Assembly (NCBI RefSeq): GCF_002009175.1
Contig: NZ_CP018047.1
Coordinates: 930,001 to 994,000 of the forward strand
Length of the DNA stretch: 64,000 bases
Source: Streptomyces niveus
GTDB taxonomy: Bacteria > Actinomycetota > Actinomycetes > Streptomycetales > Streptomycetaceae
Direction: 5' to 3'
The translations under genes and the position numbers were made by a program. Each line of letters starts with the position of its first letter. Position 1 is the first letter of the stretch. The notes below the pieces were generated by a model. It ran no database searches. It was not told the origin of the DNA and saw nothing but the letters and a program-made list of their open reading frames with translations. This document shows, one piece after another, positions 47,201 through 61,558 of this stretch.

Positions 47201-47481
47201 GGGTCGGTGGCGGCCCTGATCTGGTACGCGCTCTGCCTGGCGCCGTGGCCGTCGGCCGTCAGCTCCCAGGAGAGCAGCGGGGTGGGGTTGTCGGTGCCGA
47301 GGACGTGTTCCGCGTACTCGACCTTCGGGGCGACGACGCGCAGCCCGCCGTCGGCGCGGTCGGCGGCCTTTGCGGGTGTGGCGGCCGAGGCCGCCGGACC
47401 CGCGGCGAGCGAGACGATTCCGGCGCCCGCGCCCACCACGGATGTGCCCAGGAGACCTCTGCGTGTCCAGCCCATGCCCAT
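44212..47481 (-). CDS. Secreted alpha-L-rhamnosidase (GH78)
   Basis: 1089 aa. Twin-arginine-like signal (WTRRGLLGTSVVGAGAG, cleavage near ASA at ~35). Domain order follows GH78: an FN3-like N-terminal part with PLLSWELTADG, a Bac_rhamnosid_N domain (LYISGLAYYVAELNGRPVGE, GDNAIGVTLGRGFYG), a beta-sandwich, and the (alpha/alpha)6 barrel beginning near CSEPFYETLDKAMRRTLLNN with DTPMYEKNGWTGDAQL. The last carries the acidic residues expected at the catalytic site. A C-terminal beta domain ends the protein. It releases L-rhamnose from plant glycosides and polysaccharides, feeding the RhaTPQS importer. ATG 47481 is chosen because it opens the signal peptide. An operator lies 17 bp upstream. Confidence 0.93.
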   Translation of the reverse strand: MGMGWTRRGLLGTSVVGAGAGIVSLAAGPAASAATPAKAADRADGGLRVVAPKVEYAEHVLGTDNPTPLLSWELTADGHGARQSAYQIRAATDPRDLAKGRQLLWDTGKVTSGRGVAVPYAGPALPPRTRCHWQVRVWDGDGDVSRWSTAGWWETALGGEKWGARWIGADAPAAPPGFDGASWIWSEGATTGDAPAGPAWFRAALDLPAGAAVARATVVATADDDFTLHLGGAQVAHAPQQQDGWRTGRTADVTEAVKAAGRRVVLAAVATNRGGASVNPGGLLVRLVVETTDGQTRELVTSGDWLTFKSEQQGWQRPDFDDSGWTPATVLAPYGEGPWGDGVSVSLPEAPAPLLRREFAVRKPVTRARLYISGLAYYVAELNGRPVGEQVLDPAFTDYDETVMYAVHDVTSLLRRGDNAIGVTLGRGFYGMTTPNVWNWHRPPWHGEPRLLCRLEAEHPDGSRTTVVSDTDWRMTEGPTLTNSLYAGETYDARLAPIGWTRPGFDDRAWRAPGAQQAPKGALRAQPHDPIEIIDTITPTGISELRSGVYVVDMGRTTAGWTRLTVKAPAGTTISLIHGEKLKDDGSVHAETGHVPGRFQRDEYICAGGAEPEVWEPSFSYKGFRYVQIEGLPARPEPADVLGRTVHTKVDEVSAFSCSEPFYETLDKAMRRTLLNNLHGIPTDTPMYEKNGWTGDAQLGAPTLMYGFGVHRFLAKWLDDLKDSQNGDGQLPVIVPSGGWGYGDLGPSPEWTTVYPFLVREMYRVYGDDRVARQHWPVLTRYLDWELDRLVDGLAITALGDYLPPGYGGNPPEDTRLTATAYLHRALVDTAEMGELLGHDEVAGRYRTAAAGLKDALNAEFLNDAGHYSTAKDPDYRQTSNAIPLAFGLVPAGARASVVDSLVADIEKRGNHLNTGALGTSVLLRVLSAHGHPDVAHAIATQRTYPSWGYWFDNGADTMWEMWQLDSRSRDHYFQGTVAQWLYENVAGLRPGDDGYRTFTVRPDARTGVSWARTSIRTVRGHASVAWSKVGRDLRLTVRVPVGSSAEIHVPADRKDQVTAPKGARYVRTEPGFQIYRADHGAWDFVSRG

Positions 47482-47854
47482 GCCCGCCCCTTTTGATTGA
47501 ATCGTTTCATGTCCCGTGTCAAGAATCGTAGAGCCGACCACGGAGGGCTCACAAGAGGCGCGCAAGGGGTCGGTGCGGGAGTTCGCCACAACATCGATTC
47601 TTGCTGCGATCGGGGAGAGTTTTGCAGATGAAGTGTGATCACCAATCTCGCGAAGTGCGTCCGCGATCACGGCCGTTGACCCTGCAGGAGATCAACTCCA
47701 CGACCAACTTGCGGTCATATAGCGGTACTTCGACGTGTCGGAGCGCACGGGAATTCTGACTGAACATTCATTTCTTGCGCGGATTCATAGACTTCCTGCG
47801 GAACCACTTCTACCCTTTTCGCGTCCGCAGAGTCCCCACGAGCCGCAAGGACGT
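47482..47854. other. Divergent intergenic region of rhamnosidase and beta-helix protein
   Basis: About 370 bp. Holds the rhamnose operator at 47498-47509. At 47761-47770 TGAACATTCA has half-sites like the operator but a shorter centre. No gene is seen. Confidence 0.5.
47498..47509. promoter_or_regulatory. Rhamnose LacI-type operator, rhamnosidase side
   Basis: TGAATCGTTTCA, third copy of TGAATCNNTTCA, 16 bp from the GH78 start codon. Confidence 0.82.
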
Positions 47855-50227
47855 ATGTCTGTGACACCTCCCCCAAGACGCCGCCTGCTCCGCCGCGGTG
47901 TGTCCGCCTCACTCTCCGCCTCCCTGGCCTTCGCGACGGCGGTGGCCGGGACGGCCGCCGTCGTCGTCATGTCCGCCGCCCCGGCAGCCGTCGCCGCCGG
48001 GGTCCCCGCTCCCTCACCCGTCGGCATCCCCGGCCGTGGCGCCACCGTGCCCTTCGTGGAGCACGAGGCCGAGTACGCGGCCACCAACGGCACCCTGATA
48101 GGCCCCAACCGGCTGTACGGATCGCTCCCCTCCGAGGCCTCCGGACGGCAGGCCGTGACGCTCGACGCGGTCGGTGAGTACGTGGAGTTCACCCTCACCA
48201 AGCCGGCCAACGCCATGACCTTCCGCTACTCGCTGCCCGACAACTCCGCGGGCACCGGGCGGGACGCCGGGATCGACGTGCGGGTCAACGGCAATCAGCT
48301 CAAGAACGTGCCGGTGACCTCCAAGTACGGCTGGTACTACGGCGGTTACCCGTTCAACAACAACCCCGGCGACACCAACCCCCACCACTTCTACGACGAG
48401 ACACGCACCATGTTCGGCTCGACCCTGGCGACCGGCACCAAGGTCCGCCTCCAGGTGTCCTCGACCGCGCAGTCACCGACGTTCACCATCGACCTCGCCG
48501 ACTTCGAGCTGGTGGACGCGCCGAAGGCGAAACCGGCCGGCGCCCTGGACGTCGTGGCCGACTTCGGCGCCGACCCGTCCGGCGCCGCCGACTCGACGGC
48601 CAAGTTCCAGGCGGCGGTGGCCGCCGGGCAGGCCCAGAACAGAACCGTCTACATCCCACAGGGCGACTTCGAGATCCGCGACCACATCGTGGTCGACAAG
48701 GTGACGCTCGCCGGAGCCGGACCCTGGTACAGCGTCCTGAAGGGCCGTCACCCCACCGACCGCAGCAAGGCGGTGGGTGTCTACGGCAAGTACGCGAACC
48801 AGGGCGGCAGCAGTAACGTCACCCTGAAGGACTTCGCCATCATCGGCGACATCCGGGAGCGCGTGGACAACGATCAGGTCAACGCCATCGGCGGGGCGCT
48901 GTCGAACTCCGTCATCGACAACATCTGGATGCAGCACACCAAGTGCGGTGTCTGGGTGGACGGTCCGATGAACAACCTCACCATCAAGAACAGCCGCATC
49001 CTGGACCAGACGGCCGACGGTGTGAACTTCCACTACGGCGTCACGAACTCCACCGTCACCAACACCTTCGTCCGCAACACCGGTGACGACGGTCTGGCCA
49101 TGTGGGCGGAGAACATCCCGAACGTCAACAACAAGTTCACCTTCAACACGGTGATCCTGCCGATCCTGGCGAACAACATCGTCACGTACGGCGGCAAGGA
49201 CATCACCATCTCCGACAACGTCATGTCGGACACCATCACCAACGGCGGCGGCCTGCACATCGCCAACCGCTATCCGGGAGTCAACTCCGGTCAGGGGACG
49301 GCCGTTTCGGGCACCCACACCGCCGCGCGCAACACCCTGATCCGGGCCGGGAACAACGACTTCAACTGGCAGTTCGGCGTCGGCGCCGTGTGGTTCAGCG
49401 GGCTCAACGAACCGATCAACAACGCCACGATCAACATCATCGACACCGAGATACTGGACAGCTCGTACGCCGCGATCCATCTGATCGAGGGCGCGACGAA
49501 CGGGCTGAACTTCAAGAACATCAGGATCGACGGCGCGGGCACCTACGCGCTCCAGATCCAGGCGCCGGGCAAGGCCACGTTCGAGAACGTCAAGGCCACC
49601 AACATCGCCCAGTCCAACAAGATCCACAACTGTGTGGGTGCCGGATTCCAGATCACCCAGATCGGCAGCGGCAACTCCGGCTGGTACTCCAACCCGCCAG
49701 CCTGCACCGGTGTGTGGCCCGCGCCGCAGTGGACCAACGGCGGTGTGCCCGGCGGCCCGTCCGACCCCGGGGACCCGACGGACCCGCCGACCGACCCGCC
49801 GGGTGACGAGGGCAACCTCGCCGAGGGCCGTCCGGTCACCGCGACCGGCCAGGCACAGACGTACGGCCCCGGCAACGCCGTGGACGGCAACGCGAACACC
49901 TACTGGGAGAGCACCAACAACGCCTTCCCGCAGTCCATCACCGTGGATCTCGGCGCGGCGAAGAACGTCGACCGGCTGGTGCTGAAGCTGCCGCCGGCCG
50001 CCGCCTGGCAGACCCGTACGCAGACACTCGGCGTCTCGGGCAGCACCGACAACTCGACGTACACCTCACTCAAGGCGTCGGCGGGCGTCACCTTCAACCC
50101 GTCGAGCGCCAACACCGCGACCGTCACCCTGCCGGGGACGGCGACCCGTTACGTACGGGTCACCGTCACCGCCAACACCGGCTGGCCGGCGGCGCAGCTC
50201 TCCGAACTGGAGGTCTACGCCGACTGA
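47855..50227 (+). CDS. Secreted beta-helix glycosidase-like protein with C-terminal F5/8C domain
   Basis: 790 aa. Signal peptide with many Arg (PPPRRRLLRRGVSASLSASL, cleavage near VAA at ~48). Residues ~60-210 are a CBM-like beta-sandwich (FVEHEAEYAATNGTLIGPNR, VTLDAVGEYVEFTLTKPANA). Residues ~222-640 form a right-handed parallel beta-helix (pectate-lyase superfamily: VADFGADPSGAADSTAKFQA, QTADGVNFHYGVTNS, VRNTGDDGLAMW). A Pro/Asp linker leads to a discoidin (F5/8C) module (EGRPVTATGQAQTYGPGNAV). The order resembles GH87 alpha-1,3-glucanases (mycodextranase/mutanase) in my memory, but a GH28/GH55-like role is possible. It sits beside the rhamnosidase, suggesting polysaccharide attack. Confidence 0.75.
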   Translation: MSVTPPPRRRLLRRGVSASLSASLAFATAVAGTAAVVVMSAAPAAVAAGVPAPSPVGIPGRGATVPFVEHEAEYAATNGTLIGPNRLYGSLPSEASGRQAVTLDAVGEYVEFTLTKPANAMTFRYSLPDNSAGTGRDAGIDVRVNGNQLKNVPVTSKYGWYYGGYPFNNNPGDTNPHHFYDETRTMFGSTLATGTKVRLQVSSTAQSPTFTIDLADFELVDAPKAKPAGALDVVADFGADPSGAADSTAKFQAAVAAGQAQNRTVYIPQGDFEIRDHIVVDKVTLAGAGPWYSVLKGRHPTDRSKAVGVYGKYANQGGSSNVTLKDFAIIGDIRERVDNDQVNAIGGALSNSVIDNIWMQHTKCGVWVDGPMNNLTIKNSRILDQTADGVNFHYGVTNSTVTNTFVRNTGDDGLAMWAENIPNVNNKFTFNTVILPILANNIVTYGGKDITISDNVMSDTITNGGGLHIANRYPGVNSGQGTAVSGTHTAARNTLIRAGNNDFNWQFGVGAVWFSGLNEPINNATINIIDTEILDSSYAAIHLIEGATNGLNFKNIRIDGAGTYALQIQAPGKATFENVKATNIAQSNKIHNCVGAGFQITQIGSGNSGWYSNPPACTGVWPAPQWTNGGVPGGPSDPGDPTDPPTDPPGDEGNLAEGRPVTATGQAQTYGPGNAVDGNANTYWESTNNAFPQSITVDLGAAKNVDRLVLKLPPAAAWQTRTQTLGVSGSTDNSTYTSLKASAGVTFNPSSANTATVTLPGTATRYVRVTVTANTGWPAAQLSELEVYAD

Positions 50228-50289: not shown

Positions 50290-51048
50290 TCACACCGCGT
50301 AGGTGTCGAGCCGCCCGCACATCCCGAACTTCCCTCGCGCGTGGGGCAGTCGGGCATGGACCCGCGCGTCGGCGAGATGCGCCGCGTCCCCCTCGGTGAG
50401 CCGGTCGAGCTGCGCGCCGGTCTGCCGCGAGGCCTCCGCCGCACCGGACTCCCAGCGTGCCCGCCAGTCCGCGAGCCGCGGCGCCACCAGCGCACCGGCC
50501 GCCCGGTGGAAGTCCAGCAGCGGCTTCTCGTCCCCCGCGTCCCACGCCGCGCGCAGCGCCGCGAACCCCTCGACCGCCAGGTCCCGTCTGCGCCGGGCGA
50601 AGGCCGCCTGTTCGGCCTCGGTGCCCTCGGGGACACGGACCAGGCGTCCGTAGGTCTCGGGGTCGGTCAGATGTTCAGGCGGCAGGGTCAGCACGGCGTC
50701 CCCGGCCTCGGGGAGTCCGGTGTTCTGCATGAGTACGACGATCCGCAGTCCGTCCTCGTTCACGAGCCGGTGGATCGTGCCCGGTGTGAACCACACCAGG
50801 GCTCCCGGCTCCAGCGGTGTGCTCTCGAACCCCTCGGCCGTGAGGGTCTGCACCGCGCCGCGCCCCGCGGTCACGACATACCCTTCCGAGCAGGTCAGAT
50901 GGAGATGCGGGGTGCCGCCCCGGAGGCCGTCGGCCGCCTCCCAGTCGTACACGGTCAGGTGCGACACCGCGACGGCGCCGGGCAGTCCGGCGAACCCCGA
51001 CGCCGTGCCCGTGCTGGTGGATGAGCCTGTGCGGGACGTCGTCAACAC
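50290..51048 (-). CDS. Cupin-domain protein
   Basis: 252 aa from GTG 51048, which follows CCAGGGGGA. Cupin motifs lie at ~40-120: GTPHLHLTCSEGYVVTAGRG (motif 1 with HxH and E), then GALVWFTPGTIHRLVNEDGL (motif 2 with the last His), so a metal site is complete. The C-terminal half is helical (DLAVEGFAALRAAWDAGDEK, DFHRAAGALVAPRLADWRAR). Single-domain cupins with such tails are often sugar-related enzymes, but the reaction is unknown. Promoter TTGACA (51131-51126) and TACGTT (51108-51103) with 17-bp spacing precede it, and a LacI-type operator lies between promoter and start. Confidence 0.75.
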   Translation of the reverse strand: MLTTSRTGSSTSTGTASGFAGLPGAVAVSHLTVYDWEAADGLRGGTPHLHLTCSEGYVVTAGRGAVQTLTAEGFESTPLEPGALVWFTPGTIHRLVNEDGLRIVVLMQNTGLPEAGDAVLTLPPEHLTDPETYGRLVRVPEGTEAEQAAFARRRRDLAVEGFAALRAAWDAGDEKPLLDFHRAAGALVAPRLADWRARWESGAAEASRQTGAQLDRLTEGDAAHLADARVHARLPHARGKFGMCGRLDTYAV

Positions 51049-51362
51049 TCCCCCTGGGACCGGCAAAGTAGTCGAGTAAGCGCTTTCTGAACCTTCTGTC
51101 AGAACGTAGATCCACCCCGTCCCCCTGTCAACGACAGGTGCGAGGGAAACGTGGCATGGCGGCGGCGCCACCTGTGGCATCCTCAACTCGGCCCGGGCGA
51201 CACGCTTTCCCGGCGACACGCTTTCGCAACGACCGGAGCACGACGCGAGGAACCACCGCGATCCAGGGGGCGTCCCCCCATAAGGTCGCGGCGAGGTGGG
51301 CGACCGGGCCGCGACTCACGGTGCACGGTCACGGGGAACACCCGATTCAGGGGGAAACAGGG
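51049..51362. other. Divergent intergenic region
   Basis: Carries the cupin promoter and operator. The plus-strand frame of the next gene is open from 51138, but its codons up to 51362 are Arg/Thr-rich and unlike the rest of that protein, so I treat them as leader. Confidence 0.4.
51078..51085. promoter_or_regulatory. LacI-type operator AAGCGCTT with promoter upstream of cupin gene
   Basis: The palindrome AAGCGCTT (in TAAGCGCTTTC) is the core preferred by many LacI-family repressors of sugar genes. It lies just downstream of a near-consensus minus-strand promoter (-35 51131-51126, -10 51108-51103), where a repressor would block initiation. The site differs from the rhamnose operator, so another regulator is implied. 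Confidence 0.6.
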
Positions 51363-52928
51363 TTGGCACAGGTATCACCCAACACGGCGCAGGCGGACCC
51401 GCGGCAGAAGAAACTGGCAGGGGAACTGAGGCTCCTCGCCGCCGAGCCCGCCTTCGAACTGCGTCGTGCGGAACTCATCGATCTCGCCCATGACCTGGAG
51501 CAGCACACACGTCTCGACCGATGGGCCGACGTGGATCTGGTGCAGGCGTACGTACGTCCGGAGAGCCTGGCCCAGCCGCCACCGGCCCCCCGCGCGCCGC
51601 TCCGCTCACAGCTAAGGGTGGCGCTGGCGGCCAAGGCGGGCACCGGGGCGCTGGTACGCGTGGTGCGTGACGAGATGCGGCAACGCCCCGTGCGGGAAGG
51701 GGCGTTGGAGGCGTCGCTGGGCGTGCTGGTGTTCGTCCCGCTGCTCATCACCTGGTTCGGACTGCGGGAAGCGGTGCGTGCGTACGGGGAGTTGAGCCAG
51801 GAGAACCCGAAGGAGGCGACCCGGCCGTTCCTCCAGCTGTGGCAGTCGGGCTTCGGCGGTCATCTCTCGTCGTCGGGCCGCTTCGAGAACGTGGCGCTGA
51901 TGGCGGTCGTACTGATCAGCCTTCTGGTGGTGCTCTCGGTCTGGCACGCGCGCGCCCGCTCACGCGCGGACCGGATGGAGGCGAAGCTGAACGCGGAGCA
52001 GGAGTACCTGCTCGGTCGGCTGGCGTCCCTGCTCACCCGGATCCAGCTGGCGCTGGTGCCTCATCGCGCGGCCTCTCCACAGCAGTTCACCGCCGGTCTG
52101 AGCAAGGCCGCCACCCGGATGGAGTCGCTGGCGTCCCGCGCCGACCGTAGTCACAGTTCGCTGGTCAGCTCGGCGAAGGCGCTGGAGGACGCGACCACCT
52201 CGCTGGAGAACGCCGCCCTGGCGCTGACCGGCGAGCTGCCGAAGCTCGGCACGGCGGCGGACCGTATCGAGGCGGCCGTACGCGGCGGGCAGGCGGCGAC
52301 CGCGCAGGCGGGCGCGGAGAATCAGGCCGCGGCGGGCCGGATCGCCGACCGCATCAAGTCGGCGGGCGACACGGTGGAGGCGTCGCTGAAGGCGCTCGCC
52401 GCCGCTCAGCAGACGCTGGCGACGAAGTCGGAGACGGTGGCGCAGGCCACGGAGCGCGCGTCCAAGGCCCTGGTGGACAGCGCCGGGCGCACGAACGACG
52501 CCGTCGACGGGATGCGGGACGCCACGGAGCGCTGGGACGCGGCGGCGGCGCACTGGCAGGACGCGGCGGCCCGGCTGGAGACCGGGCTTCGCGGGCTGAC
52601 GGTGCCTCAGACCCGTTCCGGGGCCGGGGGCTTCGCGGCGCCGGAGGCCGACTACGGCGTGACGCCCGTTCCGGCCGTCCACCCCGTGCCCGAGTCGGCG
52701 TCCGCGCCGACGCTTGCCGGCGGGCGCGCGTACGGGGCCGGGTTCGAGTACGACACGCCCACGGAACGGCTCTCGCTGAGCGGTGCGAACGGCGGGGCGA
52801 ACAGCGGCGCGAACGGGAGTCCGAACGGCGGGGCGGGCACCGGACCCGACGCGCCGGCCACGCCCGGCATCCCCGAGCAGGGCCCGGCCCGTCCGCCGTA
52901 TCCGCCGCAGGACGGGGTGGGCTCGTGA
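51363..52928 (+). CDS. Two-helix membrane protein with long coiled coil
   Basis: 521 aa from TTG 51363 (preceded by GGGGGAAACAGGG); ATG/GTG codons further up are possible but less likely. Residues ~1-110 are cytoplasmic and helical. Two hydrophobic helices follow (LEASLGVLVFVPLLITWFGL ~115-134 and VALMAVVLISLLVVLSVW ~177-194). A helical, Ala-rich stretch of ~280 residues then shows coiled-coil periodicity (MEAKLNAEQEYLLGRLASLL, KALEDATTSLENAALAL), and the tail is Pro/Gly-rich. The layout (membrane helices, long cytoplasmic coiled coil, overlap with a MotB-like gene) resembles ExbB/MotA-type channel subunits such as ZorA in outline only. GTGA overlap with the next gene. Confidence 0.65.
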   Translation: MAQVSPNTAQADPRQKKLAGELRLLAAEPAFELRRAELIDLAHDLEQHTRLDRWADVDLVQAYVRPESLAQPPPAPRAPLRSQLRVALAAKAGTGALVRVVRDEMRQRPVREGALEASLGVLVFVPLLITWFGLREAVRAYGELSQENPKEATRPFLQLWQSGFGGHLSSSGRFENVALMAVVLISLLVVLSVWHARARSRADRMEAKLNAEQEYLLGRLASLLTRIQLALVPHRAASPQQFTAGLSKAATRMESLASRADRSHSSLVSSAKALEDATTSLENAALALTGELPKLGTAADRIEAAVRGGQAATAQAGAENQAAAGRIADRIKSAGDTVEASLKALAAAQQTLATKSETVAQATERASKALVDSAGRTNDAVDGMRDATERWDAAAAHWQDAAARLETGLRGLTVPQTRSGAGGFAAPEADYGVTPVPAVHPVPESASAPTLAGGRAYGAGFEYDTPTERLSLSGANGGANSGANGSPNGGAGTGPDAPATPGIPEQGPARPPYPPQDGVGS

Positions 52929-53449
52929 GCCGTCCCGTACGCCGCGTGGGCCAACTGGCCGGACGGGTACGGCGCGGTGGGCGGCCCGGTGTCGTCATGC
53001 TGGCCGGCTGGCTCTTCGCCGACCTCGTGCTGGTGCTGGCGCTGGTGTCGATGGCGGACCGGCCGGACCCACTGGCCGCCCGCCCGGCGGCGAGGCCGTC
53101 GCCGTCCGGCTCCCCTTCCCCGTCGCCCTCGCCGACGCCGTCTCCCGTCGGTCCGAGGTCGGTGGAGCTGAAGCCGCAGCAGATCCGGGTGAAGGGCGGC
53201 GCGAGCGAGGACATCGTCGCCCAGATCAACAAGGGCACGAAGAAGTGGCCGGGGCGCACGGCCGCGCTGGTGCTGACCTTCGGCGGCAGCCAGGGCGGTA
53301 CGGAGTACGCGCACCGCGTCAACTCGCTGCTCAGCAAGGCCCGTCCGGAGATGTTCTCCAAGAAGACGGCGACGGACGACTTCCACGATCTCGGTGAACC
53401 GTCGAACACGGCGATCATCCGGATCTACTTCTACACCTCGCCCCGCTGA
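52925..53449 (+). CDS. MotB/ExbD-like single-pass membrane protein
   Basis: 174 aa. Basic N-terminus, then one membrane helix with a buried Asp: GWLFADLVLVLALVSM (~28-43, Asp 33). The placement of FADL at the start of the helix is that of the proton-carrying Asp in MotB, ExbD and TolR. A Pro/Ser-rich linker (~58-75) leads to a compact ~100-residue extracytoplasmic domain (KPQQIRVKGGASEDIVAQIN, LVLTFGGSQGGTEYAHRVNS, IIRIYFYTSPR), whose order distantly suggests an OmpA/MotB peptidoglycan-binding fold. Its start overlaps the stop of the coiled-coil membrane protein, so the two likely form one complex. Confidence 0.6.
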   Translation: MSRPVRRVGQLAGRVRRGGRPGVVMLAGWLFADLVLVLALVSMADRPDPLAARPAARPSPSGSPSPSPSPTPSPVGPRSVELKPQQIRVKGGASEDIVAQINKGTKKWPGRTAALVLTFGGSQGGTEYAHRVNSLLSKARPEMFSKKTATDDFHDLGEPSNTAIIRIYFYTSPR

Positions 53450-53533
53450 GCCCCGACCCCCGAGCCCCGACCCCTGATTCCCGACCGCTGACCGGGCGGC
53501 CCTGGCGCCGCGACGAACGAGAGGACCCACGGC

Positions 53534-55750
53534 GTGGAGCGGTGGCGGCCCGGCGCACGGGTGGCAGGCGCGAGTGGCGGTACGGACGTGCGGCGGCTGC
53601 CGCCGCCCGTCCTGCCGCAGTTCCCCGGTATGCGCGGCTTCGCGGAACTCGACTCGGTGATCCGCCGGTTGGGTTTCCGGCATGCCGCCGATCTGCTGCG
53701 GGGCCCGGCCGTCGAGGCCGGGACGAGCGTGTTCGCGACTCTGCCGAAGGCGACGACGGACGACGGCTTCCGGATCCTGGACGGCCTCTGGTTCCCCGCC
53801 CGGGGGCGTGCGTGGACGCGGGTGGATCTGCGGCACATCCAGGAGACCGCCGAGCGGTGGCGCACGTCCACCGATCCGCGCGGCGGTACGGCGGCGGCGC
53901 TGATGGACACCATGGAGACCGTCGTGCGCGACGATCCGATGGGGCCTCGGCGCATCGTGCTCTGGCAGGTGTGCCGTGAGCTGAAGGACCGGTCCGGCGG
54001 GCCGTCCGCCGAGGCGGCGGAGGCGCTGGGTGTGCACAGTACGGACGCCGCGCCGCTGGCGGCAGCCGTCGCGGCGGGCTTTGCGGGCCGCGGGCCGGTG
54101 CGTGACGCTGCCGAGTCGATCAACGAGGTCTGGCCCGGTGATCGGCTGCGGGAGGCCCTGCGGATCGCCGAACTGCTGCCCCCGCACGCCACCGACCATG
54201 TGCTGGCGAACTTCCTGACCCGGCTGAACGACCGGGCGGCGGCCGTGGACCGGCTGATGGAGGAGGCACGGCGGCTCGGGCAGCTCGGTGAGCTGCGGGC
54301 GGCGACGGTCTCCTGGCTCGCGGCCGTACGGCGCGCCACCGACGACGACCGGGCGCTCGCGGGCCTGCTCGGCGCCGCCGCGCTGCTGGCCGACGAGCGG
54401 CACTCCCCCGACGCGCCGTCGCCCGTCGACTCGACGGTACGGGTGAGTGTCGAGCGGCGGGCCGTCACCCTGAGGTGGACGGCGGCGCGCCTGCCGCGTG
54501 ACACGGCCAGGGCCGGGAAGGACCGGGGAGCGCCGGTGTCGTACCGGGTGCTGCGCTTCCCGGACGGCGCCCCCGAGCAGGCCGCCGAGGTGCCGTACAC
54601 GGACAGCTCGCTGTCGGTGTTCGACCCGGGCGCCCCGATCGGCAGGCGGGTGCGGTACGCCGTACTGCCGCTGCGCCGGGGCCAGTTGGCGGGGGTGCCG
54701 CGGGTCACCGGCGCCGTGCTGCTGGTGCCGGACGTGGAGGAGGTCCGTGCGATGCCGGTGCCCGACGGCGTACGGCTTCAGTGGCGCGCGCACCCGGCGG
54801 CGAGAGGGTTCAGGGCGGTCCGCTCGACCGCCCGCCGGGCCGGGGGGCCGGACCGGGCCGGGCAGCCGACGGACGGTGTGCCGGTGGACGGACTGCCGGT
54901 GCCGGCCGGGCGGAAGGGGTTCGTGGACCGCCCGCTGCTGCCGGGAACGTATCTGTACGAGATCTCCTGCGGCTATCCGGCGGTGCCCGATCTGCCGGGC
55001 GACGAGGGTGAGTTGGTGTGGTCGCCGGGGCTGCGGGTGGCCGCCACGTCCGTGGAGTGGCCGTCGCCGGTGGAGGACGTCACCGTACGGAGCCTCGAAG
55101 GCGGCACTGTGACGATCGACTGGCGTCCCCCGGCGCGCGGGAACGGGCGTCTGGTGGAGTGGCCCGGCCTGCCCATGGCGCCGGGTGACGATGTGTCGGG
55201 TACACCGGCCGCGCGGTCGGCGCCGGGCGAGGGACCGGTGAGCGTCGTGCCCGGGGCGCGGTCCCGGATCCGGGTGACGGCGGTCAGTGTGCTCGGCGAC
55301 CGGGCGGTGGCCGGGCCGAGCGTGCTGGTCGAACGGCCGGGCGCCGTCGAGGACTTGACGGCGCTGCGCCTCGCGCCCGGTACGGCGGAGCTGCGGTTCC
55401 GCTGGCCCGAGCCCGCCGTCCTGGTGCTGGTGGCGTGGGAGCAGGAGGGCCTGCGGCGGGAGACGCGGGTGGCGCGCAGCCGCTATCTGGCCGAGCGGCG
55501 GGTCGAGATCCCGCTGACCGGGCGCCCGTGCCGTATCGAGGTGAGCGCGGTGCCCCGCCCCGACGCGGTGTCGATCCCCACGGTCCCGGCCACGACGTCC
55601 CTGCCGCATGTCCCCGAACCGCCGCCGCAGCCGCCCCGCAACAGCCGCGCCCTGGCCCTGCTGACGTTCCCGTGGACGCCCTGGGGCAACGGCGGCGCGC
55701 CGCGCGGCCGCCCGTGGTGGCGCCGTTGGCGCCCGCGCTCCGGCAGCTGA
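53534..55750 (+). CDS. Large protein with C-terminal FN3-like repeats
   Basis: 738 aa, GTG 53534 after GAGGA. Residues ~1-290 are helical and unassigned (LPQFPGMRGFAELDSVIRRL, ALREALRIAELLPPHATD-like segments). Residues ~300-690 contain about four fibronectin-III-like domains, visible as repeated strand patterns: VTLRWTAARL / VSYRVLRFPDG, VRLQWRAHPAARGFRAVRS, VEDVTVRSLEGGTVTIDWRP and VEDLTALRLAPGTAELRFRW. The C-terminus is Pro/Arg-rich. No signal peptide or membrane helix, so it should be cytoplasmic, which is unusual for FN3 repeats except in conflict and signalling systems. Third gene of the plus-strand group facing the kinase operon. Confidence 0.7.
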   Translation: MERWRPGARVAGASGGTDVRRLPPPVLPQFPGMRGFAELDSVIRRLGFRHAADLLRGPAVEAGTSVFATLPKATTDDGFRILDGLWFPARGRAWTRVDLRHIQETAERWRTSTDPRGGTAAALMDTMETVVRDDPMGPRRIVLWQVCRELKDRSGGPSAEAAEALGVHSTDAAPLAAAVAAGFAGRGPVRDAAESINEVWPGDRLREALRIAELLPPHATDHVLANFLTRLNDRAAAVDRLMEEARRLGQLGELRAATVSWLAAVRRATDDDRALAGLLGAAALLADERHSPDAPSPVDSTVRVSVERRAVTLRWTAARLPRDTARAGKDRGAPVSYRVLRFPDGAPEQAAEVPYTDSSLSVFDPGAPIGRRVRYAVLPLRRGQLAGVPRVTGAVLLVPDVEEVRAMPVPDGVRLQWRAHPAARGFRAVRSTARRAGGPDRAGQPTDGVPVDGLPVPAGRKGFVDRPLLPGTYLYEISCGYPAVPDLPGDEGELVWSPGLRVAATSVEWPSPVEDVTVRSLEGGTVTIDWRPPARGNGRLVEWPGLPMAPGDDVSGTPAARSAPGEGPVSVVPGARSRIRVTAVSVLGDRAVAGPSVLVERPGAVEDLTALRLAPGTAELRFRWPEPAVLVLVAWEQEGLRRETRVARSRYLAERRVEIPLTGRPCRIEVSAVPRPDAVSIPTVPATTSLPHVPEPPPQPPRNSRALALLTFPWTPWGNGGAPRGRPWWRRWRPRSGS

Positions 55751-55810
55751 GACGCCCCGGCACGGGTGGGGCGGCCGGACTCCGTGTCACGGCCGTCCCG
55801 CCCGCGGTGC

Positions 55811-57160
55811 CTACGCGTGCACCTGCGCCTCCGTCCCGCCGCCGAACTCCAGCAGCAGGCCGGGGCGCAGTGCCACCGTGCGGCCGGGGCCGACGTCCTG
55901 GACCGTGCCGTCGTCGCGGCGGACGGTCCAGCCGGACGCCGTACGGTTGGTGAGCCCGAACCGGCCGCGCTGCTGCGGGTGTTCGGTCATCTCCCCCACC
56001 ACGGCGGTGAAGTCGTGCCTCTCCGGGTCGTCTTCCAGGTGGTGCGCGTACACGCGCGCCTTCGGGTCGAGCCGGATGCCGCGGCGGGTACGGAGCGTGC
56101 CGCGGCCGGTGACGATTTCGAGCTTCGGGGGCAGCAGTACGGTGTTGCCGCACTTCCAGCAGTCGGGTGCTGGGCCGTCGGGCTGCGTCATGTTCTGCCT
56201 GCCGCAGGAGGCGCACACCGTGATGGCGTCGAGGACCCGGCTCAGCGCGTCCCGCCACTGGGACTCGCGGACCCGTGCCGACGGTGTGTTGAGCCCGTGG
56301 GTGAAGGTCTTGACGAACAGGTCGCGCAGGATCTTCGGCAGCGCGCCCCAGGTGGCGATGACGGTCGGGTGTTCGCCGGGCACGGGCCTGTTGCCGGTGT
56401 CGGCGGGGTCGTAGATGAACAGCGGATGGGTGCCGTACATCTTGCGCTTGGCCGCCTCGTCCATGCAGCGGATCTGCAACGCCTGTGCTCCGTCAAGCGG
56501 GTGATGGTTCATCAGCAGCAGGAACAGCAGGACGGCGAGTGAGTGCAGGTCGCTCTGGATGCCGGGGAGCGCGCCCTTGTCTCCGCGTACCAGCTCGGGC
56601 GCCATGAAGTCCATCGTCCCGGCGACGGCGGCGGCTTCGCCGTCCACCACCGCGTTGTCGTTGTCGCACACCAGCACGTCGCCGGTGACCGGGTCGAAGA
56701 AGATGTTGCCCCAGTTGATGTCGCGGTAGGCGATGCCCTTGGAGTGCAGGGTGAAGTACGCCTCGACGGTGTGCAGCGCGGCGGCGACGAGCGTACGCAG
56801 TGTGGTCGCCGCCACCGACGCGTCACGGCGGAAGAGGGCGGGCAGGTCGTGGAAGCGCTGGGGCCGTACGTCCATGAGGTAGCCGAAGCCCGGGTAGGAG
56901 GCGTCCGGGTCCATCACGACCGTCTGCGGCCACAGGAACCGGTCGTCGCCCCAGCCGCGGTGGATGAGCCCTTCGAGGATCTGCCGCTGCCGGGCGTCGG
57001 CCAGTTGCGGATAGTACCACTTCACGGCCCGGTCGCCGTGCGGTGTCCGTACCCGGTAGACCTCGCCCTGGCCGCCCGAGCCGAAGAGCTCGGCGACCGT
57101 GACCCGGTCCCCGGATTCGGTGACCAGGATCTGTCCGGCTGCGAGCATGCCGTTGGCCAT
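55811..57160 (-). CDS. Ser/Thr kinase with zinc ribbon and FHA-like tail (TerY-P triad kinase)
   Basis: 449 aa. The kinase domain spans ~15-300: glycine loop LFGSGGQGEVYRV, Lys in RAVKWYY, catalytic loop GIAYRDINWGNIFFD (Y/R/D with N), metal-binding CDNDNAV in place of DFG, and TMDFMAPELV in the activation region. A zinc ribbon follows at ~325-350 (VCASCGRQNM and CWKCGNTV). The last ~100 residues are beta-rich (RFGLTNRTASGWTVRRDDGT) and resemble an FHA domain. No membrane helix. Kinases of this form are companions of PP2C and vWA proteins in the TerY-phosphorylation triad; here it is 17 bp downstream of the PP2C gene. The altered DFG motif leaves activity open. Confidence 0.8.
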   Translation of the reverse strand: MANGMLAAGQILVTESGDRVTVAELFGSGGQGEVYRVRTPHGDRAVKWYYPQLADARQRQILEGLIHRGWGDDRFLWPQTVVMDPDASYPGFGYLMDVRPQRFHDLPALFRRDASVAATTLRTLVAAALHTVEAYFTLHSKGIAYRDINWGNIFFDPVTGDVLVCDNDNAVVDGEAAAVAGTMDFMAPELVRGDKGALPGIQSDLHSLAVLLFLLLMNHHPLDGAQALQIRCMDEAAKRKMYGTHPLFIYDPADTGNRPVPGEHPTVIATWGALPKILRDLFVKTFTHGLNTPSARVRESQWRDALSRVLDAITVCASCGRQNMTQPDGPAPDCWKCGNTVLLPPKLEIVTGRGTLRTRRGIRLDPKARVYAHHLEDDPERHDFTAVVGEMTEHPQQRGRFGLTNRTASGWTVRRDDGTVQDVGPGRTVALRPGLLLEFGGGTEAQVHA

Positions 57161-57176
57161 GCTGTTCCTCTCTGCG

Positions 57177-58106
57177 TCAGTGCGTGTCTGTGTGGGGGTG
57201 GGACGGCGCGGCGCCTGGGCCGACGACGGCCGGGATGGCGCCCGCGAGTGTCGCGTCGTCCCCGGAGTACTTGGCCGCGTGGCCGAGCCAGTCGGGGAGC
57301 TGCGCCTGAACGGCCGCGACGCCGTGGGACGCGGCGCGCGACCGGACCCCGGAGGCGAAGGCGAGGAATCCCTCGTGGTCGGCGAAGGACTTGGAGAGTC
57401 CGTCGGTGGAGATCAGTACGCCGGGGGGCGGACCGCCGGTGAGGGGCTGCCAGTGCAGCCGGGCCTTGCGCCAGGCTTCGGGCTCGCAGAGCGATTCCGT
57501 CTCGTCGCCCATGTCGGGGCCGGTGTAGAACGGCATGCGGGTCGTGCCGTCCGGGTCGACGAGGACGATGTCGCCGTCACCCAACTGCCAGCAGACCAGC
57601 AGTCGTTCGGTGACGACGGCGCCGACGAGCGTGCTGCCGTAGACGGCGAGGTCTGCGTCGGGCGCGGATCCGGCGGTGGGCCGGACGGCGGTTCCGGCGG
57701 TGGCTCCTGCCGGACCGCCCGGCGCGGCGCCCGGCTTCCTCCCGTGTGCCGGGGAGTTGGCCTCGTGTATCTGGACGCGGCGGCGCCAGGCGTGCACGAC
57801 CTGCTGCGGGAGCGAGCGGGCCTCGGCGAGCAGCCGGGGCCAGTTCGCCGCGTCCTGCCCGCGTCGTACGACCTCGTGCGCGTAGATCCGGGCGCCGGCC
57901 GTGAACGCCTCCACGGCCCAGCGCGCGCCGAGTTCACTGCGGAAGTGCGCGCGTGACCCGTGCCCGTCGGCGACCGCCAGCACGACGGCGCGGCCGTCCG
58001 CCGTGGTGAGCGCCCTGCCCCGGTCCTGGCTGTACTTCTTGGCTACTCCCTTGACTCCTCCGTCGAGGAGTTCCCACGCCACGGTGGATGTCCCGGTCGT
58101 GTTCAC
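57177..58106 (-). CDS. PP2C-family protein phosphatase (TerY-P triad)
   Basis: 309 aa, GTG 58106 overlapping the vWA stop (GTGA). PP2C motifs are in order: KKYSQDRG, VVLAVADGHGSRAHF (metal Asp), CWQLGDGDIVLV, LISTDGLSKSFADHEG and SGDDATLAG. Between ~115 and 155 is a Gly/Ala/Pro-rich insertion (GAAPGGPAGATAG). Soluble enzyme that should remove phosphate placed by the adjacent kinase. The order vWA-PP2C-kinase, with overlapping or nearly touching genes, is the described TerY-P triad arrangement. Confidence 0.85.
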   Translation of the reverse strand: MNTTGTSTVAWELLDGGVKGVAKKYSQDRGRALTTADGRAVVLAVADGHGSRAHFRSELGARWAVEAFTAGARIYAHEVVRRGQDAANWPRLLAEARSLPQQVVHAWRRRVQIHEANSPAHGRKPGAAPGGPAGATAGTAVRPTAGSAPDADLAVYGSTLVGAVVTERLLVCWQLGDGDIVLVDPDGTTRMPFYTGPDMGDETESLCEPEAWRKARLHWQPLTGGPPPGVLISTDGLSKSFADHEGFLAFASGVRSRAASHGVAAVQAQLPDWLGHAAKYSGDDATLAGAIPAVVGPGAAPSHPHTDTH

Positions 58107-58792
58107 CAGATGTCGGTCTCGTCCTTGGCGAGCGGCACGACGGGCGAGACGTTGGCGGGTGTGGCGTCCTCGATCTTCGGCGCCGACGCCTCCTTCACCA
58201 CCGCGGTGGACATCCAGCGGATCGCGGCGGCCAGTTGGCGGGGGTTCTTGGCCAGCAGCGGTTCGAGTTCGGGATTGCCCAGGAACTCCTTGAGCATGCT
58301 CTTGTCCGCGTCGTCGCCGATCGCCACGGCGACCCGCACGGCGCGCTTGCCCCACGGGGTGTCGTCGATGGCGCGCAGTCCGGAGCGCCAGTCGTCGGTC
58401 GGCTGGCCGTCGGAGACCAGGGCCAGGACGGGCGGCAGGGCACGCTGCGGCATGGGCGGGGTCTGGAGCGCGGCGGCGGCCATGCGGAAGGCGGCGCCCA
58501 TGTCCGTGGCGCCGTAGGTGTGTACGTCCTCCCAGGTGAACCGGTCCACCGGGGTGGGTTCCTGGATGTGCCAACTCGCGCCGCTCGCGAAGGAGATGGC
58601 GCGCACGAGCAGTGAGGCGGCCGGGTTGGACTGGGCGGCCTGCTGCATCTCCGGGATGGCCTCACGGATGGCGAAGTTCAACTCGCCGATCTTGCCGTTC
58701 ACTCCCATGGAGCCCGAGCAGTCGAGCATCCAGATGAAGTGCGCCGGGCGGCTGGCCATACTGCCGCCGGGAACGTCGAGAATGATGGTCAC
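58103..58792 (-). CDS. vWA-domain protein (TerY-like)
   Basis: 229 aa, GTG 58792 after GGGAGAGGA. A single von Willebrand A domain with complete MIDAS: MLDCSGSMG (DxSxS, ~22), YGATDMGAAF (Thr, ~93) and LALVSDGQPTDDW (Asp, ~127). Thus it can bind Mg2+ and a partner. TerY proteins of Ter and conflict systems have this size and are phosphorylation targets or scaffolds of the linked kinase and phosphatase. Its C-terminal extension (PKIEDATPANVSPVVPLAKD) is short and Pro-rich. It follows the GAP1-like gene by 165 bp. Confidence 0.85.
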   Translation of the reverse strand: MTIILDVPGGSMASRPAHFIWMLDCSGSMGVNGKIGELNFAIREAIPEMQQAAQSNPAASLLVRAISFASGASWHIQEPTPVDRFTWEDVHTYGATDMGAAFRMAAAALQTPPMPQRALPPVLALVSDGQPTDDWRSGLRAIDDTPWGKRAVRVAVAIGDDADKSMLKEFLGNPELEPLLAKNPRQLAAAIRWMSTAVVKEASAPKIEDATPANVSPVVPLAKDETDIW

Positions 58793-58957
58793 GCTGGTCC
58801 TCTCCCCCGAGGCGCCCGTTCGCGCACGCCTGGTTCTAGCTGGGTGGTGCTGGTGTTGGGTGTGGTGATGCGGCCCGATGCCGCCGAAAGCGGTGGTGGA
58901 AAGCCTAGTTGAGGGCCCCTCAGTTGATTCGCCGAGCGGGGATATTGAGGCCCCGGT

Positions 58958-61558
58958 TCAGCGCGGCGGATGCGACGGCGAGTATCCGGACGGATATTCG
59001 GGCGGGTACGTGGGCAGTTCGCCGGGGCGCGGCGGCGGTGGCTGACCGGGGACATGGCCGCCGCCCTCCGGGCGCCCCTGTCCCGGGGGGTGCGGGGCGG
59101 GGCTGCCGGGGATCCGGGTGTCCGGGCCGTCGCCGACGCCGTTCGTCCATCGCAGCCAGTTCCGGACCAGGTTGTTCGACCGTCTCGCCAGCCGGGTGGC
59201 GACCGCGCCGCGCTGTTCGTCGTTCATCCGGCGCACCACGACGCCCACCGTGTGCCGTAGCAACTCGTCGACCACGAAGGGCCAGTCGCGGGAGGTCCGG
59301 TTGAGTTCCCGGCGCCAGACGTAGAAGAGATCGGCGACGGCCTCCGGCTGCGCGGCCATACGGTTCACCTTGGCGTCGTCGGCGAACTCGGCCACCACGG
59401 CGGCGCGGTAGTGCCGCTGCAACGCCGGTTCGGCGGTGGCGAGGAACGACAGCGCGCCCGACTTGTAGAGGTCGTGCGGCGAGAGCCCGGCGAGGCCGCG
59501 GGCGAGCAGGTACTGGACGCCGTCCCACAGCGGCACGTCCAGCGGCGACGCGGCGCGGCGCAGCTCGTCGACCCGGTCCACGACATCCCCGGGCGCGTGG
59601 CTGGTCCGGGCGAAGTCGTCGGCGAGGACGAGCAGTTGGGCGATGGCGCGCTCCCGCTTGGTCAGCTCAGCCCGGCGGTGGACCGCGCTGGCGAAGTCCA
59701 CCAGCTCCTGGTCGAACCGTCCGGGCGAGGTGAGCCACGCCAGGAACCGGGTGCCGAGGCCGGCGTCGAGAACGGCCTCCGCGCCGCAGATGCGGACGAT
59801 ACGGGGGAAGTCCGGCCGCTCGGGCTGGTCGGACCCCCAGACGAGTCCCCACAGGGTTTCCAGTGTCGGCGGGTCCGCGGCGGGCGACACGGCCGCGCCG
59901 GGGGCCGGTTCGGCGAGTTTCACGAACAGGTCGATCCCGCGCAGGTGGTGCGGTGAGCCGCCCCACCACACGGCCTGCTCGACGAGGCGTACGGAGGGCG
60001 GCGCGATGTCGCGGTGGGCCCTCACCCACTCGCCGTGGGGCGATCTCAGCAGCTCCAGCAGGAGGCGGCTGCGCCGGCCGGTCGTCTCGACGGCGATCCG
60101 TGCGAGGACCAGCCGGTTCAGCCCCTGGTGACCGACGGTCTTGAGGACGGTGACGGCGTCGGCACACTCCCGGCCGCGCGGCTGGAGCAGTACGCGTACG
60201 AGCTTGTTCACGGCGTCCTCGACACCGGGGCCCTGGTCACCGTGCAGGACAAGCGCGAGGTGCAGTGGTCCCGCCCAGGTTGCGACCGGGCCGCGGATCC
60301 TGTGCACGAGCCCCTTGTCGAAGTCGAGTCCGAACTCGGAGCGCAGCGAGCCTCTGGCCGCCTCCCCGAGTGGCAGACCGACGAGCGGGTCCTGTCCGAG
60401 TGCGCCGTCCTGGTCGAGGGCGGCGGCGAGCCGCCGGCGGACGAGGGCCAGTGCCAGGGGGTCGGTGACGCTCTCGGTGCAGTGCTTGCCGAGTTCCTGG
60501 CAGACGCGGGTCAACTCCTCGATGGCCGGGGAGCCCTGGGTCTGGTCCCGGGCGGCTTGGGCGAGTGTGTCGACGACCGCGCGCAGCGAGTCCCTGTGGA
60601 GTGTGGTGAGCCCGTCCCCCGACGCCGTTCCCGTCCGCAGGAGTTGACGTACGAGCGTGGCGGGGGCGAACGGGTCGCCGGCCTCCGCCGTACCGGGCGC
60701 CGCAGGGGTCGGCGGGGTGCCCGCCTGCCATAGCGCTGCCGCCAACTCGGCCCAGGTGTCGGGGACATACGGGCTCCCCTGCCCTCCGAGCCCGTCGTGG
60801 ACGCGGTAGAGGTGCTCGACGAGCAGCGGGTCGGCGCGGTCGAACGACGCGTCCGGGCCGATTCCGACGATCTGCTGCGGCGCTTCGTGCGGCTCGTCGG
60901 TACGGGTGACGAACGTCAGCTCCCTGGCGTGCTGTTCGGGCAGTGACGCGCAGGCGAGCGCGATCCAGCGGACGACCGTCTCCGGGTCCTCCTCGGCGAT
61001 GACGATCTGCCGCCCGGCGGGGTCGGCCCACAGGCACCGTACGTCGGCGAGGAACGGTGCGACACGCGGTCCCCGCTCCTGGGCGAAGCGGACGAGCAGC
61101 GGGAGGTCGAGGTGCCCTTCGGGCGCGGGGAGCAGGTCCCCGCCCCCTTCGGCCGGGCCGGAGTCGTCCCAGGACCGGGAGCGCCATGTGTCGATCGGCC
61201 ACACCTGGTCGAACCCGGCGGCGCCCGTCGGAAGGTGGACGACGTCGATGAACTGCCGTCGCTCGCCGGGCTGTTCACCGTCCGCGCGGCCGTTGCACAG
61301 GACACTGCCGCCGTCCGGGAGCCGACTGCAGCTCAGGACTCCGTGCGGGGTCCAGCGATGGGTCAGCGTGATGACCTGCTCGACCTGCGCGAGCAGATCG
61401 TCCGGGGCTCCGGACCCGGCGCCGCCGTGGACAACGCCGCCGCCCCCGCCCCCGGACCGCGGAGGCTCGGGCGACCGGAGCGGCTGCAGCGGCTGGAGGC
61501 GGACGCTGCCGGTGTCCGGCTCCCGGTCGAGCAGGTAGCTGAGACGGCGGATGACCAT
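58958..61558 (-). CDS. GAP1-like (GTPase-associated protein 1) large protein
   Basis: 866 aa, ATG 61558 with a weak ribosome site. It starts MVIRRLSYLLDREPDTGSVR, then a Gly-rich linker. A central part reads EEDPETVVRWIALACASLPE, ELTFVTRTDEPHEAPQQIVG and IGPDASFDRADP, which recalls the middle region of GAP1 proteins. The C-terminal ~500 residues are helical repeats (LVRQLLRTGTASGDGLTTLH, LARRSNNLVRNWLRWTNGVG) and the tail is Pro-rich. GAP1 proteins occur with GTPases, vWA, kinase and phosphatase genes in predicted NTP-dependent conflict systems of actinobacteria. Here it is first gene of the minus-strand unit GAP1-vWA-PP2C-kinase; the usual GTPase gene is not in the window. Assignment is from memory of the family. 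Confidence 0.55.
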   Translation of the reverse strand: MVIRRLSYLLDREPDTGSVRLQPLQPLRSPEPPRSGGGGGGVVHGGAGSGAPDDLLAQVEQVITLTHRWTPHGVLSCSRLPDGGSVLCNGRADGEQPGERRQFIDVVHLPTGAAGFDQVWPIDTWRSRSWDDSGPAEGGGDLLPAPEGHLDLPLLVRFAQERGPRVAPFLADVRCLWADPAGRQIVIAEEDPETVVRWIALACASLPEQHARELTFVTRTDEPHEAPQQIVGIGPDASFDRADPLLVEHLYRVHDGLGGQGSPYVPDTWAELAAALWQAGTPPTPAAPGTAEAGDPFAPATLVRQLLRTGTASGDGLTTLHRDSLRAVVDTLAQAARDQTQGSPAIEELTRVCQELGKHCTESVTDPLALALVRRRLAAALDQDGALGQDPLVGLPLGEAARGSLRSEFGLDFDKGLVHRIRGPVATWAGPLHLALVLHGDQGPGVEDAVNKLVRVLLQPRGRECADAVTVLKTVGHQGLNRLVLARIAVETTGRRSRLLLELLRSPHGEWVRAHRDIAPPSVRLVEQAVWWGGSPHHLRGIDLFVKLAEPAPGAAVSPAADPPTLETLWGLVWGSDQPERPDFPRIVRICGAEAVLDAGLGTRFLAWLTSPGRFDQELVDFASAVHRRAELTKRERAIAQLLVLADDFARTSHAPGDVVDRVDELRRAASPLDVPLWDGVQYLLARGLAGLSPHDLYKSGALSFLATAEPALQRHYRAAVVAEFADDAKVNRMAAQPEAVADLFYVWRRELNRTSRDWPFVVDELLRHTVGVVVRRMNDEQRGAVATRLARRSNNLVRNWLRWTNGVGDGPDTRIPGSPAPHPPGQGRPEGGGHVPGQPPPPRPGELPTYPPEYPSGYSPSHPPR

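What the first reader, a model, noticed from the sequence alone, without database searches (positions are those of the whole stretch)
51363..61558. Inward-facing cluster joining a TerY-P phosphorylation triad, a GAP1-like protein and a possible MotA/MotB-type channel pair
Seen: minus-strand genes GAP1-like, vWA, PP2C and kinase with tight spacing, and three plus-strand genes (coiled-coil membrane protein, single-pass protein with a buried Asp, FN3-like repeat protein) converging on them. Known: vWA-PP2C-kinase triads and GAP1 proteins belong to predicted conflict systems of multicellular bacteria, and MotA/MotB-like pairs serve as effectors in Zorya phage defence. Inference: phospho-signalling through vWA and FN3 proteins could gate a proton or ion channel, a combination I do not know as a described system. 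The GTPase usually found with GAP1 is missing here.
Basis: partly seen in the sequence, partly recalled or inferred. Interest (0 to 1): 0.75.

Follow-up and report, generated by a model that had tools for sequence, protein, structure and literature searches.

The report
Kinase-linked membrane motor-like pair in Streptomyces
A conserved seven-gene cassette in Streptomyces couples a kinase/phosphatase signalling trio and a suspected conflict-system sensor to a two-protein membrane unit built like bacterial ion-driven motors, which stands where related cassettes carry two GTPases.

Summary
The seven genes are real and form one conserved unit: of 80 GTDB loci with the 174-aa protein (ZB), 22 are of the FN3 type, and 17 of the 18 not cut by a contig end carry all seven genes in this inward-facing order. 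The 521-aa protein (ZA) precedes ZB in 80 of 80. GAP1 + FN3 + vWA + PP2C + kinase is already described in actinobacteria (eLife 2020). New is ZA-ZB. Related GAP1-triad loci without it carry two DO-GTPases (7 of 8), one with membrane helices; the five with it carry none. ZA-ZB also precedes a different vWA-PP2C-kinase triad in 46 of 80 loci; BrxD and a helicase adjoin ZA-ZB in 10 of 80. ZB has one membrane helix with an invariant Asp (84 of 84 readable) and an outer domain compatible with OmpA/MotB; ZA has two membrane segments with a near-invariant Thr and a coiled-coil tail. No profile shows MotA, ExbB, ZorA, ZorB or MotB homology of the membrane parts, so only the architecture is motor-like. 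Best reading, moderate confidence: a phospho-controlled, ion-driven membrane effector or transducer of a conflict system, replacing a GTPase switch.

The parts
51363..52928 (+). ZA: 521 aa, helical N-terminal domain, two membrane segments (about 114-132 and 177-195, inside predicted helices 112-147 and 174-234), long coiled-coil tail to about residue 413, disordered C-terminus; MotA/ZorA-like by architecture only
   Evidence: TM1 motif FxPxxx[TS]W in 87 of 88 de-duplicated ZA; no MotA_ExbB hit; PADLOC ZorA matches only residues 200-405, the coiled coil
52925..53449 (+). ZB: 174 aa, one membrane helix (22-43) with invariant Asp33, Pro/Ser linker, predicted beta-alpha-beta-alpha-beta-beta domain (85-170) compatible with OmpA/MotB
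   Evidence: start overlaps the ZA stop
53534..55750 (+). FN3-like protein, 738 aa, homologue of the FNIII component of GAP1-N2 systems
   Evidence: Pfam fn3 below cut-off; its profile hits the corresponding gene of the GTPase-type loci at 175-499 bits
55811..57160 (-). Ser/Thr kinase with two CxxC pairs (zinc-ribbon-like) and beta-rich C-terminus (TerY-P type; the label is from papers and recall)
   Evidence: Pkinase E 3.8e-14; RDINWGN and CDND motifs; CxxC seen
57177..58106 (-). PP2C-family phosphatase, 309 aa
   Evidence: PP2C_2 E 2e-29; start from the GTGA overlap with vWA
58103..58759 (-). stand-alone vWA protein (TerY-like) with DxSxS MIDAS, no TM-like segment
   Evidence: VWA_2 E 2e-4, below cut-off; MIDAS
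58958..61558 (-). GAP1 protein (GAP1-M and GAP1-C; N-terminal domain resembles GAP1-N2 weakly)
   Evidence: GAP1-C 3.5e-61, GAP1-M 9.8e-18, GAP1-N2 17.9 bits of 24

Best explanation
A conflict-system (probably anti-phage) cassette in which a phospho-signalling triad and a GAP1/FN3 sensor-scaffold control a membrane complex of ZA and ZB that works like ZorAB/MotAB: several ZA subunits around a ZB pair, ions moving past the ZB Asp and a ring of ZA Thr, ZB held on the cell wall by its outer domain, and the ZA coiled-coil tail passing motion or signal into the cytoplasm. Shown: gene conservation, invariant Asp, near-invariant Thr, predicted folds, presence in place of the DO-GTPases, recurrent link to vWA-PP2C-kinase triads. 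Inferred: ion conduction, stoichiometry, wall binding, kinase control of the pair, and defence as the purpose.
Confidence: 0.5

Rival explanations
1. ZA-ZB is a wall-anchored sensor or scaffold without ion conduction: ZB senses cell-wall or envelope damage and ZA passes this to the kinase triad, the effector lying elsewhere.
For: The absent GTPase (GTPa) carries TM-like segments in 7 of 7 loci, and related GTPases may carry wall-binding domains (PMC7159879), so only a membrane/wall anchor may have been swapped. No homology to motors.
Against: An Asp in mid-membrane, invariant across the gene contexts seen, is costly without an ionic role; it is paired with a near-invariant TM Thr in ZA.
Confidence: 0.3
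2. The cassette serves hyphal physiology (envelope stress, septation, development) rather than defence.
For: Seen here mainly in Streptomycetaceae, Streptosporangiaceae and Thermomonosporaceae (a weak ZA match in Kineococcus); HSP70 genes join it in 11 of 22 FN3-type loci; no phage evidence.
Against: Patchy presence: 15 of 150 family genomes; some sister loci carry BrxD-helicase or lie near restriction-type genes; the GAP1-triad type was proposed as a conflict system.
Confidence: 0.17
3. The two facing gene groups are unrelated neighbours.
For: They are on opposite strands; ZA-ZB-FN3 occurs alone in L068 and L049.
Against: Convergent order conserved in 17 of 18 testable loci; FN3 and GAP1 lie in one co-directional run in the DO-GTPase relatives.
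Confidence: 0.03

Closest known systems
GAP1-N2 GTPase-centric conflict systems, third theme (PMC7159879)
   Same: GAP1, FNIII protein, kinase with zinc ribbon and beta-rich domain, PP2C, stand-alone vWA, in actinobacteria
   Different: No DO-GTPase2; ZA-ZB present instead; FN3 on a convergent strand; 11 of 22 relatives add HSP70 genes, which that paper places in a separate, non-overlapping theme
Zorya (ZorA-ZorB with ZorC/D or ZorE)
   Same: Adjacent A-B membrane pair, A with long coiled-coil tail, B with one Asp-bearing helix and an outer domain compatible with OmpA; some relatives add a helicase
   Different: No ZorA match over the membrane part, no ZorB match, none of ZorC/D/E among the seven proteins; triad, GAP1 and FN3 instead
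vWA proteins paired with TolQ-like motors (PMC12204202, passages)
   Same: A vWA protein beside a 5:2-type motor; an Asp-bearing transpore helix with a Thr ring
   Different: There the vWA is membrane-tethered, itself the axle or transducer, with true TolQ homologues, and reported from other phyla (such as Proteobacteria and Verrucomicrobia); here the vWA has no TM segment, comes with PP2C and kinase, and ZA has no TolQ homology
TerY-P triad (vWA-PP2C-kinase)
   Same: Same three genes, tightly spaced, kinase with CxxC pairs
   Different: Tied here to GAP1/FN3 and a membrane pair; no Ter or CoCoNuT gene among the seven
GldLM and other 5:2 ion-driven motors
   Same: Two-gene unit with wheel-like and axle-like candidates; GldLM is likewise without obvious MotAB homology
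   Different: Stoichiometry and conduction untested; different outer domain and partners

Membership tests
GAP1-N2 GTPase-centric system | GAP1 with N, M and C domains | tested here: inconclusive
   M and C above cut-off, N2 17.9 of 24 bits
GAP1-N2 GTPase-centric system | DO-GTPase gene | tested here: not met
   0 PF19993 matches in the whole genome; no hit of the GTPase profiles in the window or in any of 94 ZA-ZB loci. PF19975 search without a working control
GAP1-N2 GTPase-centric system | FNIII-repeat component | tested here: inconclusive
   Pfam fn3 below cut-off; profile links it to the FN3 gene of DO-GTPase loci
TerY-P triad | Adjacent vWA, PP2C and kinase with zinc ribbon | tested here: met
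   vWA below the Pfam cut-off but with MIDAS; the ribbon is judged from CxxC pairs only
Zorya | ZorA homologue including the MotA/ExbB membrane core | tested here: not met
   PADLOC ZorA matches only coiled-coil residues 200-405 of ZA; in five relatives likewise tail stretches
Zorya | ZorB homologue and ZorC/D or ZorE | tested here: not met
   No PADLOC match to these among the seven proteins
MotAB/ExbBD/TolQR family | Sequence membership (MotA_ExbB and partner families) | tested here: not met
   hhalign against 11 MotA and 8 MotB rows, no signal (a weak test with few rows picked by rule)
5:2 ion-driven motor (works like) | B subunit: single helix with mid-membrane Asp | tested here: met
   D33 in helix 22-43, 84 of 84 readable
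5:2 ion-driven motor (works like) | B subunit: wall-binding OmpA-like domain | tested here: inconclusive
   Fold compatible, but unrelated folds score equally
5:2 ion-driven motor (works like) | A-subunit helices with conserved Ser/Thr next to the Asp | tested here: inconclusive
   Thr/Ser in ZA TM1 in 87 of 88; contact with the Asp not shown
5:2 ion-driven motor (works like) | Five A and two B subunits, ion flow | not testable with these tools
   only single chains can be modelled

The most novel reading that the evidence does not exclude
ZA-ZB is an undescribed, highly diverged ion-driven motor or channel family, mainly of filamentous actinomycetes, that is placed under Ser/Thr-phosphorylation control and stands in GAP1-FN3 conflict systems in place of two GTPases, so that ion-motive force replaces GTP as the energy source of the switch.
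Probability: 0.4. Interest if true: 0.82.

Novelty: new variant of a known kind. Interest (0 to 1): 0.62.

Why it matters
If true, it adds a possible ion-driven membrane effector family to bacterial conflict systems, links it to Ser/Thr kinase-phosphatase control, and offers a natural exchange between GTPase and ion-driven modules in otherwise the same cassette, so that the role of the GTPase in these untested systems can be studied by comparison. It would also mean that ZorAB-like units occur in an organism with no recognisable MotA/ExbB gene (0 PF01618 matches in the window's genome; 8 of 14 control genomes rang).

Tried and rejected
ZA as a Zorya member: PADLOC ZorA hits (E 8.6e-4 for the window, down to 3.5e-6 in the five relatives tried) lie in the coiled-coil tail, as do SMC and dynactin hits; rejected as homology evidence. 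PHROGs gives nothing for ZA or ZB.

hhalign of ZA against 11 MotA and of ZB against 8 MotB rows from actinobacterial genomes: no signal, no better than the crossed controls. Profile search of ZB against PDB sequences: nothing better than E 0.82.

Search of 296 phylum genomes with the ZB profile at E 1e-8 found only the window's own genome (1 of 296), so it said little about spread; the GTDB contig scan did (120 loci found, 80 kept and examined, 40 not seen).

Family search with ZB: 31 of 150 genomes at E 1e-3. Kept: 15 with ZA adjacent. Dropped: 16 with weak hits (best 9.9e-6); in the 15 of these held as loci no ZA was found in about 3 kb, one (G030) was not held.

Insertion as a unit: the flanking ABC permease (11 of 61 genomes, own included) and glucanase-like gene (31 of 61, own included) were not close together in any relative that has both, so no conclusion.

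Trees: the kinase tree splits fully by label, but support is weak (ZA-ZB side 51/0, GTPase side 88/70). In the ZA tree the FN3 type is one clade (SH-aLRT 90, no bootstrap). Roots are not inferred, so the direction of change is not shown.

DO-GTPase1 (PF19975) in the own genome: 0, but no control rang, so not informative. Promoter/terminator scan: nothing above shuffles.

Papers: searches combining TerY, TerY-P, GAP1, DO-GTPase, BrxD, MotA, MotB, Zorya, ZorA, vWA and PP2C, judged from their listings and from passages of seven papers (one of them also read in one full section), showed no vWA-PP2C-kinase triad coupled to a MotAB-like pair. One paper does couple vWA proteins to TolQ-like motors (PMC12204202, passages). 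Subscription journals are mostly not covered.

Full report
Observation. The window is 930001-994000 of an 8.0-Mb single-contig genome; the best ZA relative is 96% identical and comes from Streptomyces niveus. Seven genes stand at 51363-61558 as described: ZA, ZB and an FN3-like gene on the plus strand; kinase, PP2C, vWA and GAP1 on the minus strand, meeting tail to tail with a 60-base gap. ZA/ZB and vWA/PP2C overlap by GTGA. No promoter or terminator stands out from shuffles.

Conservation. In 150 genomes of the family, ZB with ZA beside it occurs in 15: 5 with the full seven-gene inward-facing cassette (own, G008, G095, G106, G135), 2 with ZA-ZB-FN3 only (G012, G025), 6 with ZA-ZB followed by another vWA-PP2C-kinase triad, 2 with a dynamin-like gene (types). 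A scan of GTDB contigs with the ZB alignment found 120 loci, of which 80 were kept. Own profiles run over six-frame ORFs give: ZA before ZB in 80 of 80, the hits at most 1.6 kb apart; FN3 type in 22 of 80. Of these 22, four end at a contig edge (L056, L058, L059, L065); of the other 18, 17 have all seven genes and one (L068) has ZA-ZB-FN3 only. The rest of the 80: 46 with the other complete triad, 3 cut by a contig end after its vWA (L082, L100, L127), 2 with a dynamin-like gene (L125, L130), 7 that fit none fully (L107, L112, L120, L121, L128, L131, L132).

Second context. The 46 loci carry ZA-ZB-vWA-PP2C-kinase in one direction, with no GAP1 or FN3 hit. This triad is a different one: in the examples printed its kinase has GD-x-S..N and LDCDG motifs and its vWA DESGS. 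In 10 of 80 loci BrxD (PF10923, E 2.8e-132 in L120) and a DEAD helicase are added, downstream of the kinase in nine and upstream of ZA in L102; eight of the ten are among the 46, and L120 and L121 show the kinase but no vWA or PP2C hit. BrxD and BrxHI are a linked dyad of type-2 BREX (PMC12839542, passages); that this helicase is BrxHI itself was not tested. A dynamin-like gene lies beside ZA-ZB in L050, L051 and L125 and on the other strand upstream in L130 (Pfam Dynamin_N E 2e-7 in L050). L112 has an N6-methylase near by and L107 a restriction-type helicase.

The GTPase swap. Kinases close to the window's (E at most 1e-60) occur in 16 of 150 family genomes, GAP1-C in 21 of 150, DO-GTPase2 in 25 of 150. 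Thirteen genomes have both kinase and GAP1, close together: five with ZA-ZB, eight without. Of those without, seven have a co-directional run FN3-GTPb-GAP1-GTPa-vWA-PP2C-kinase with two DO-GTPases (L133, L135-L140); L134 (G056) shows neither GTPase nor PP2C. Left out of the count: G081 (L143), which has GTPases and no ZA-ZB but broken reading frames and no GAP1-C hit, and G037 and G046, whose triads have no GAP1 nearby. Of the five with ZA-ZB, none has a GTPase in the cassette; G135 has one match below cut-off 3.1 Mb away. Fisher p is 0.005, without correction for kinship. Profiles made from the seven runs also hit L143, which was not used to build them, and hit none of 94 ZA-ZB loci nor the window. 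GTPa has TM-like segments in 7 of 7, GTPb in 0 of 7, while ZA and ZB are the only clear TM proteins of the window cassette (the kinase has one borderline segment inside its catalytic domain). Inference: the membrane arm and the GTPases were exchanged together. The kinase tree agrees with one change, with weak support.

Extended form. 11 of the 22 FN3-type GTDB loci (L056, L057, L059-L064, L066, L067, L071) add an HSP70, an HSP70-like ATPase and a large weakly TPR-like protein upstream of ZA, GrpE being detected in five of them; two more (L058, L065) show the HSP70-like gene at the contig edge. The 2020 paper puts HSP70/GrpE and kinase/PP2C/vWA in non-overlapping themes; here they meet. The window has the compact form.

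What ZA-ZB is. ZB: one TM-like segment in 84 of 88 de-duplicated sequences, Asp after GWLFA in 84 of 84 readable (the other four have a broken, masked or cut helix region), positively charged N-terminus in 81 of 84. AlphaFold gives helix 22-43 and a confident outer domain. Foldseek has no hit at E 1e-3; rank 2 is the SiiA peptidoglycan-binding domain, the other top ranks being mainly FtsZ. VIA-align gives CagT 7.8 (rank 1, in an outer-membrane complex entry), chorismate mutase 7.4, OmpA-like 7.3, MotB 6.2 (that the rank-1 chain is CagT is inferred from the named CagT rows): compatible with an OmpA/MotB fold, not specific for it. ZA: two TM-like segments in 85 of 88, motif FxPxxx[TS]W in 87 of 88; model with long helices into the cytoplasm, mean pLDDT 72.5; structure searches unspecific. 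Pfam, PADLOC, NCBIfam and PHROGs name neither protein of the window.

Mechanism. I think it most likely (about 0.5) that ZA and ZB form an ion-driven complex like ZorAB, anchored on the wall by ZB, with a ZA tail that acts on cytoplasmic partners, switched by the kinase/phosphatase/vWA triad after sensing by GAP1/FN3. Shown are the gene links, the invariant residues and the predicted folds; conduction, 5:2 make-up, wall binding, phosphorylation of the pair and the defence role are inferred. The main rival is a non-conducting wall-anchored sensor.

Literature. The GAP1-FN3-kinase-PP2C-vWA part is known in print (PMC7159879: passages and section 29). Its main text holds MotA, MotB and Zorya 0 times (the one 'zora' is an author's name). 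Papers on MotAB evolution and 5:2 motors (PMC12505986, PMC9389320: passages) name no streptomycete pair in the passages seen; 'Streptomyces' and 'Actino' occur 0 times in the first. PMC12204202 (passages) reports vWA proteins with TolQ-like motors in other phyla, a different arrangement. The CoCoNuT paper (PMC11090510, passages) describes TerY-P triads in another context. Our searches found no description of the pair (listed under Tried and rejected).

Noticed in passing
L108, L109, L110, L111, L113, L116, L118; L120, L121; L102: ZA-ZB operons with kinase (and in all but L120/L121 vWA and PP2C) adjoin BrxD and a DEAD helicase, downstream in nine and upstream of ZA in L102: a possible BREX-related defence system not found in our paper searches.
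   Followed up: partly
L050, L051, L125, L130: ZA-ZB near a dynamin-like GTPase and a large protein (1187 aa in L050, with only very weak actin/HSP70-like matches).
   Followed up: partly
L056, L057, L059-L064, L066, L067, L071 upstream of ZA: HSP70, HSP70-like ATPase and a large weakly TPR-like protein precede ZA (GrpE detected in five), joining two themes that the 2020 paper calls non-overlapping.
   Followed up: partly
L134 (G056): GAP1, FN3, vWA and kinase without DO-GTPase, ZA-ZB or PP2C hit; possibly decaying or a third solution.
   Followed up: no
L078 and L099: Two different ZA-ZB-triad loci in one genome (Streptomyces populi A249).
   Followed up: no
window 44212-50227: An alpha-L-rhamnosidase and an alpha-1,3-glucanase-like protein next to the cassette; four more glucanase-like matches elsewhere in the genome.
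   Followed up: partly
window 50290-51219 (-): 309-aa ORF with a cupin match just below cut-off (26.2 of 27.2 bits), divergent from ZA and overlapping the longer ZA starts, which favours the ZA start at 51363 or 51321.
   Followed up: partly
window 18180-23684 (-): 1834-aa protein with 18 stretches of bacterial Ig-like domain Big_3_5.
   Followed up: no
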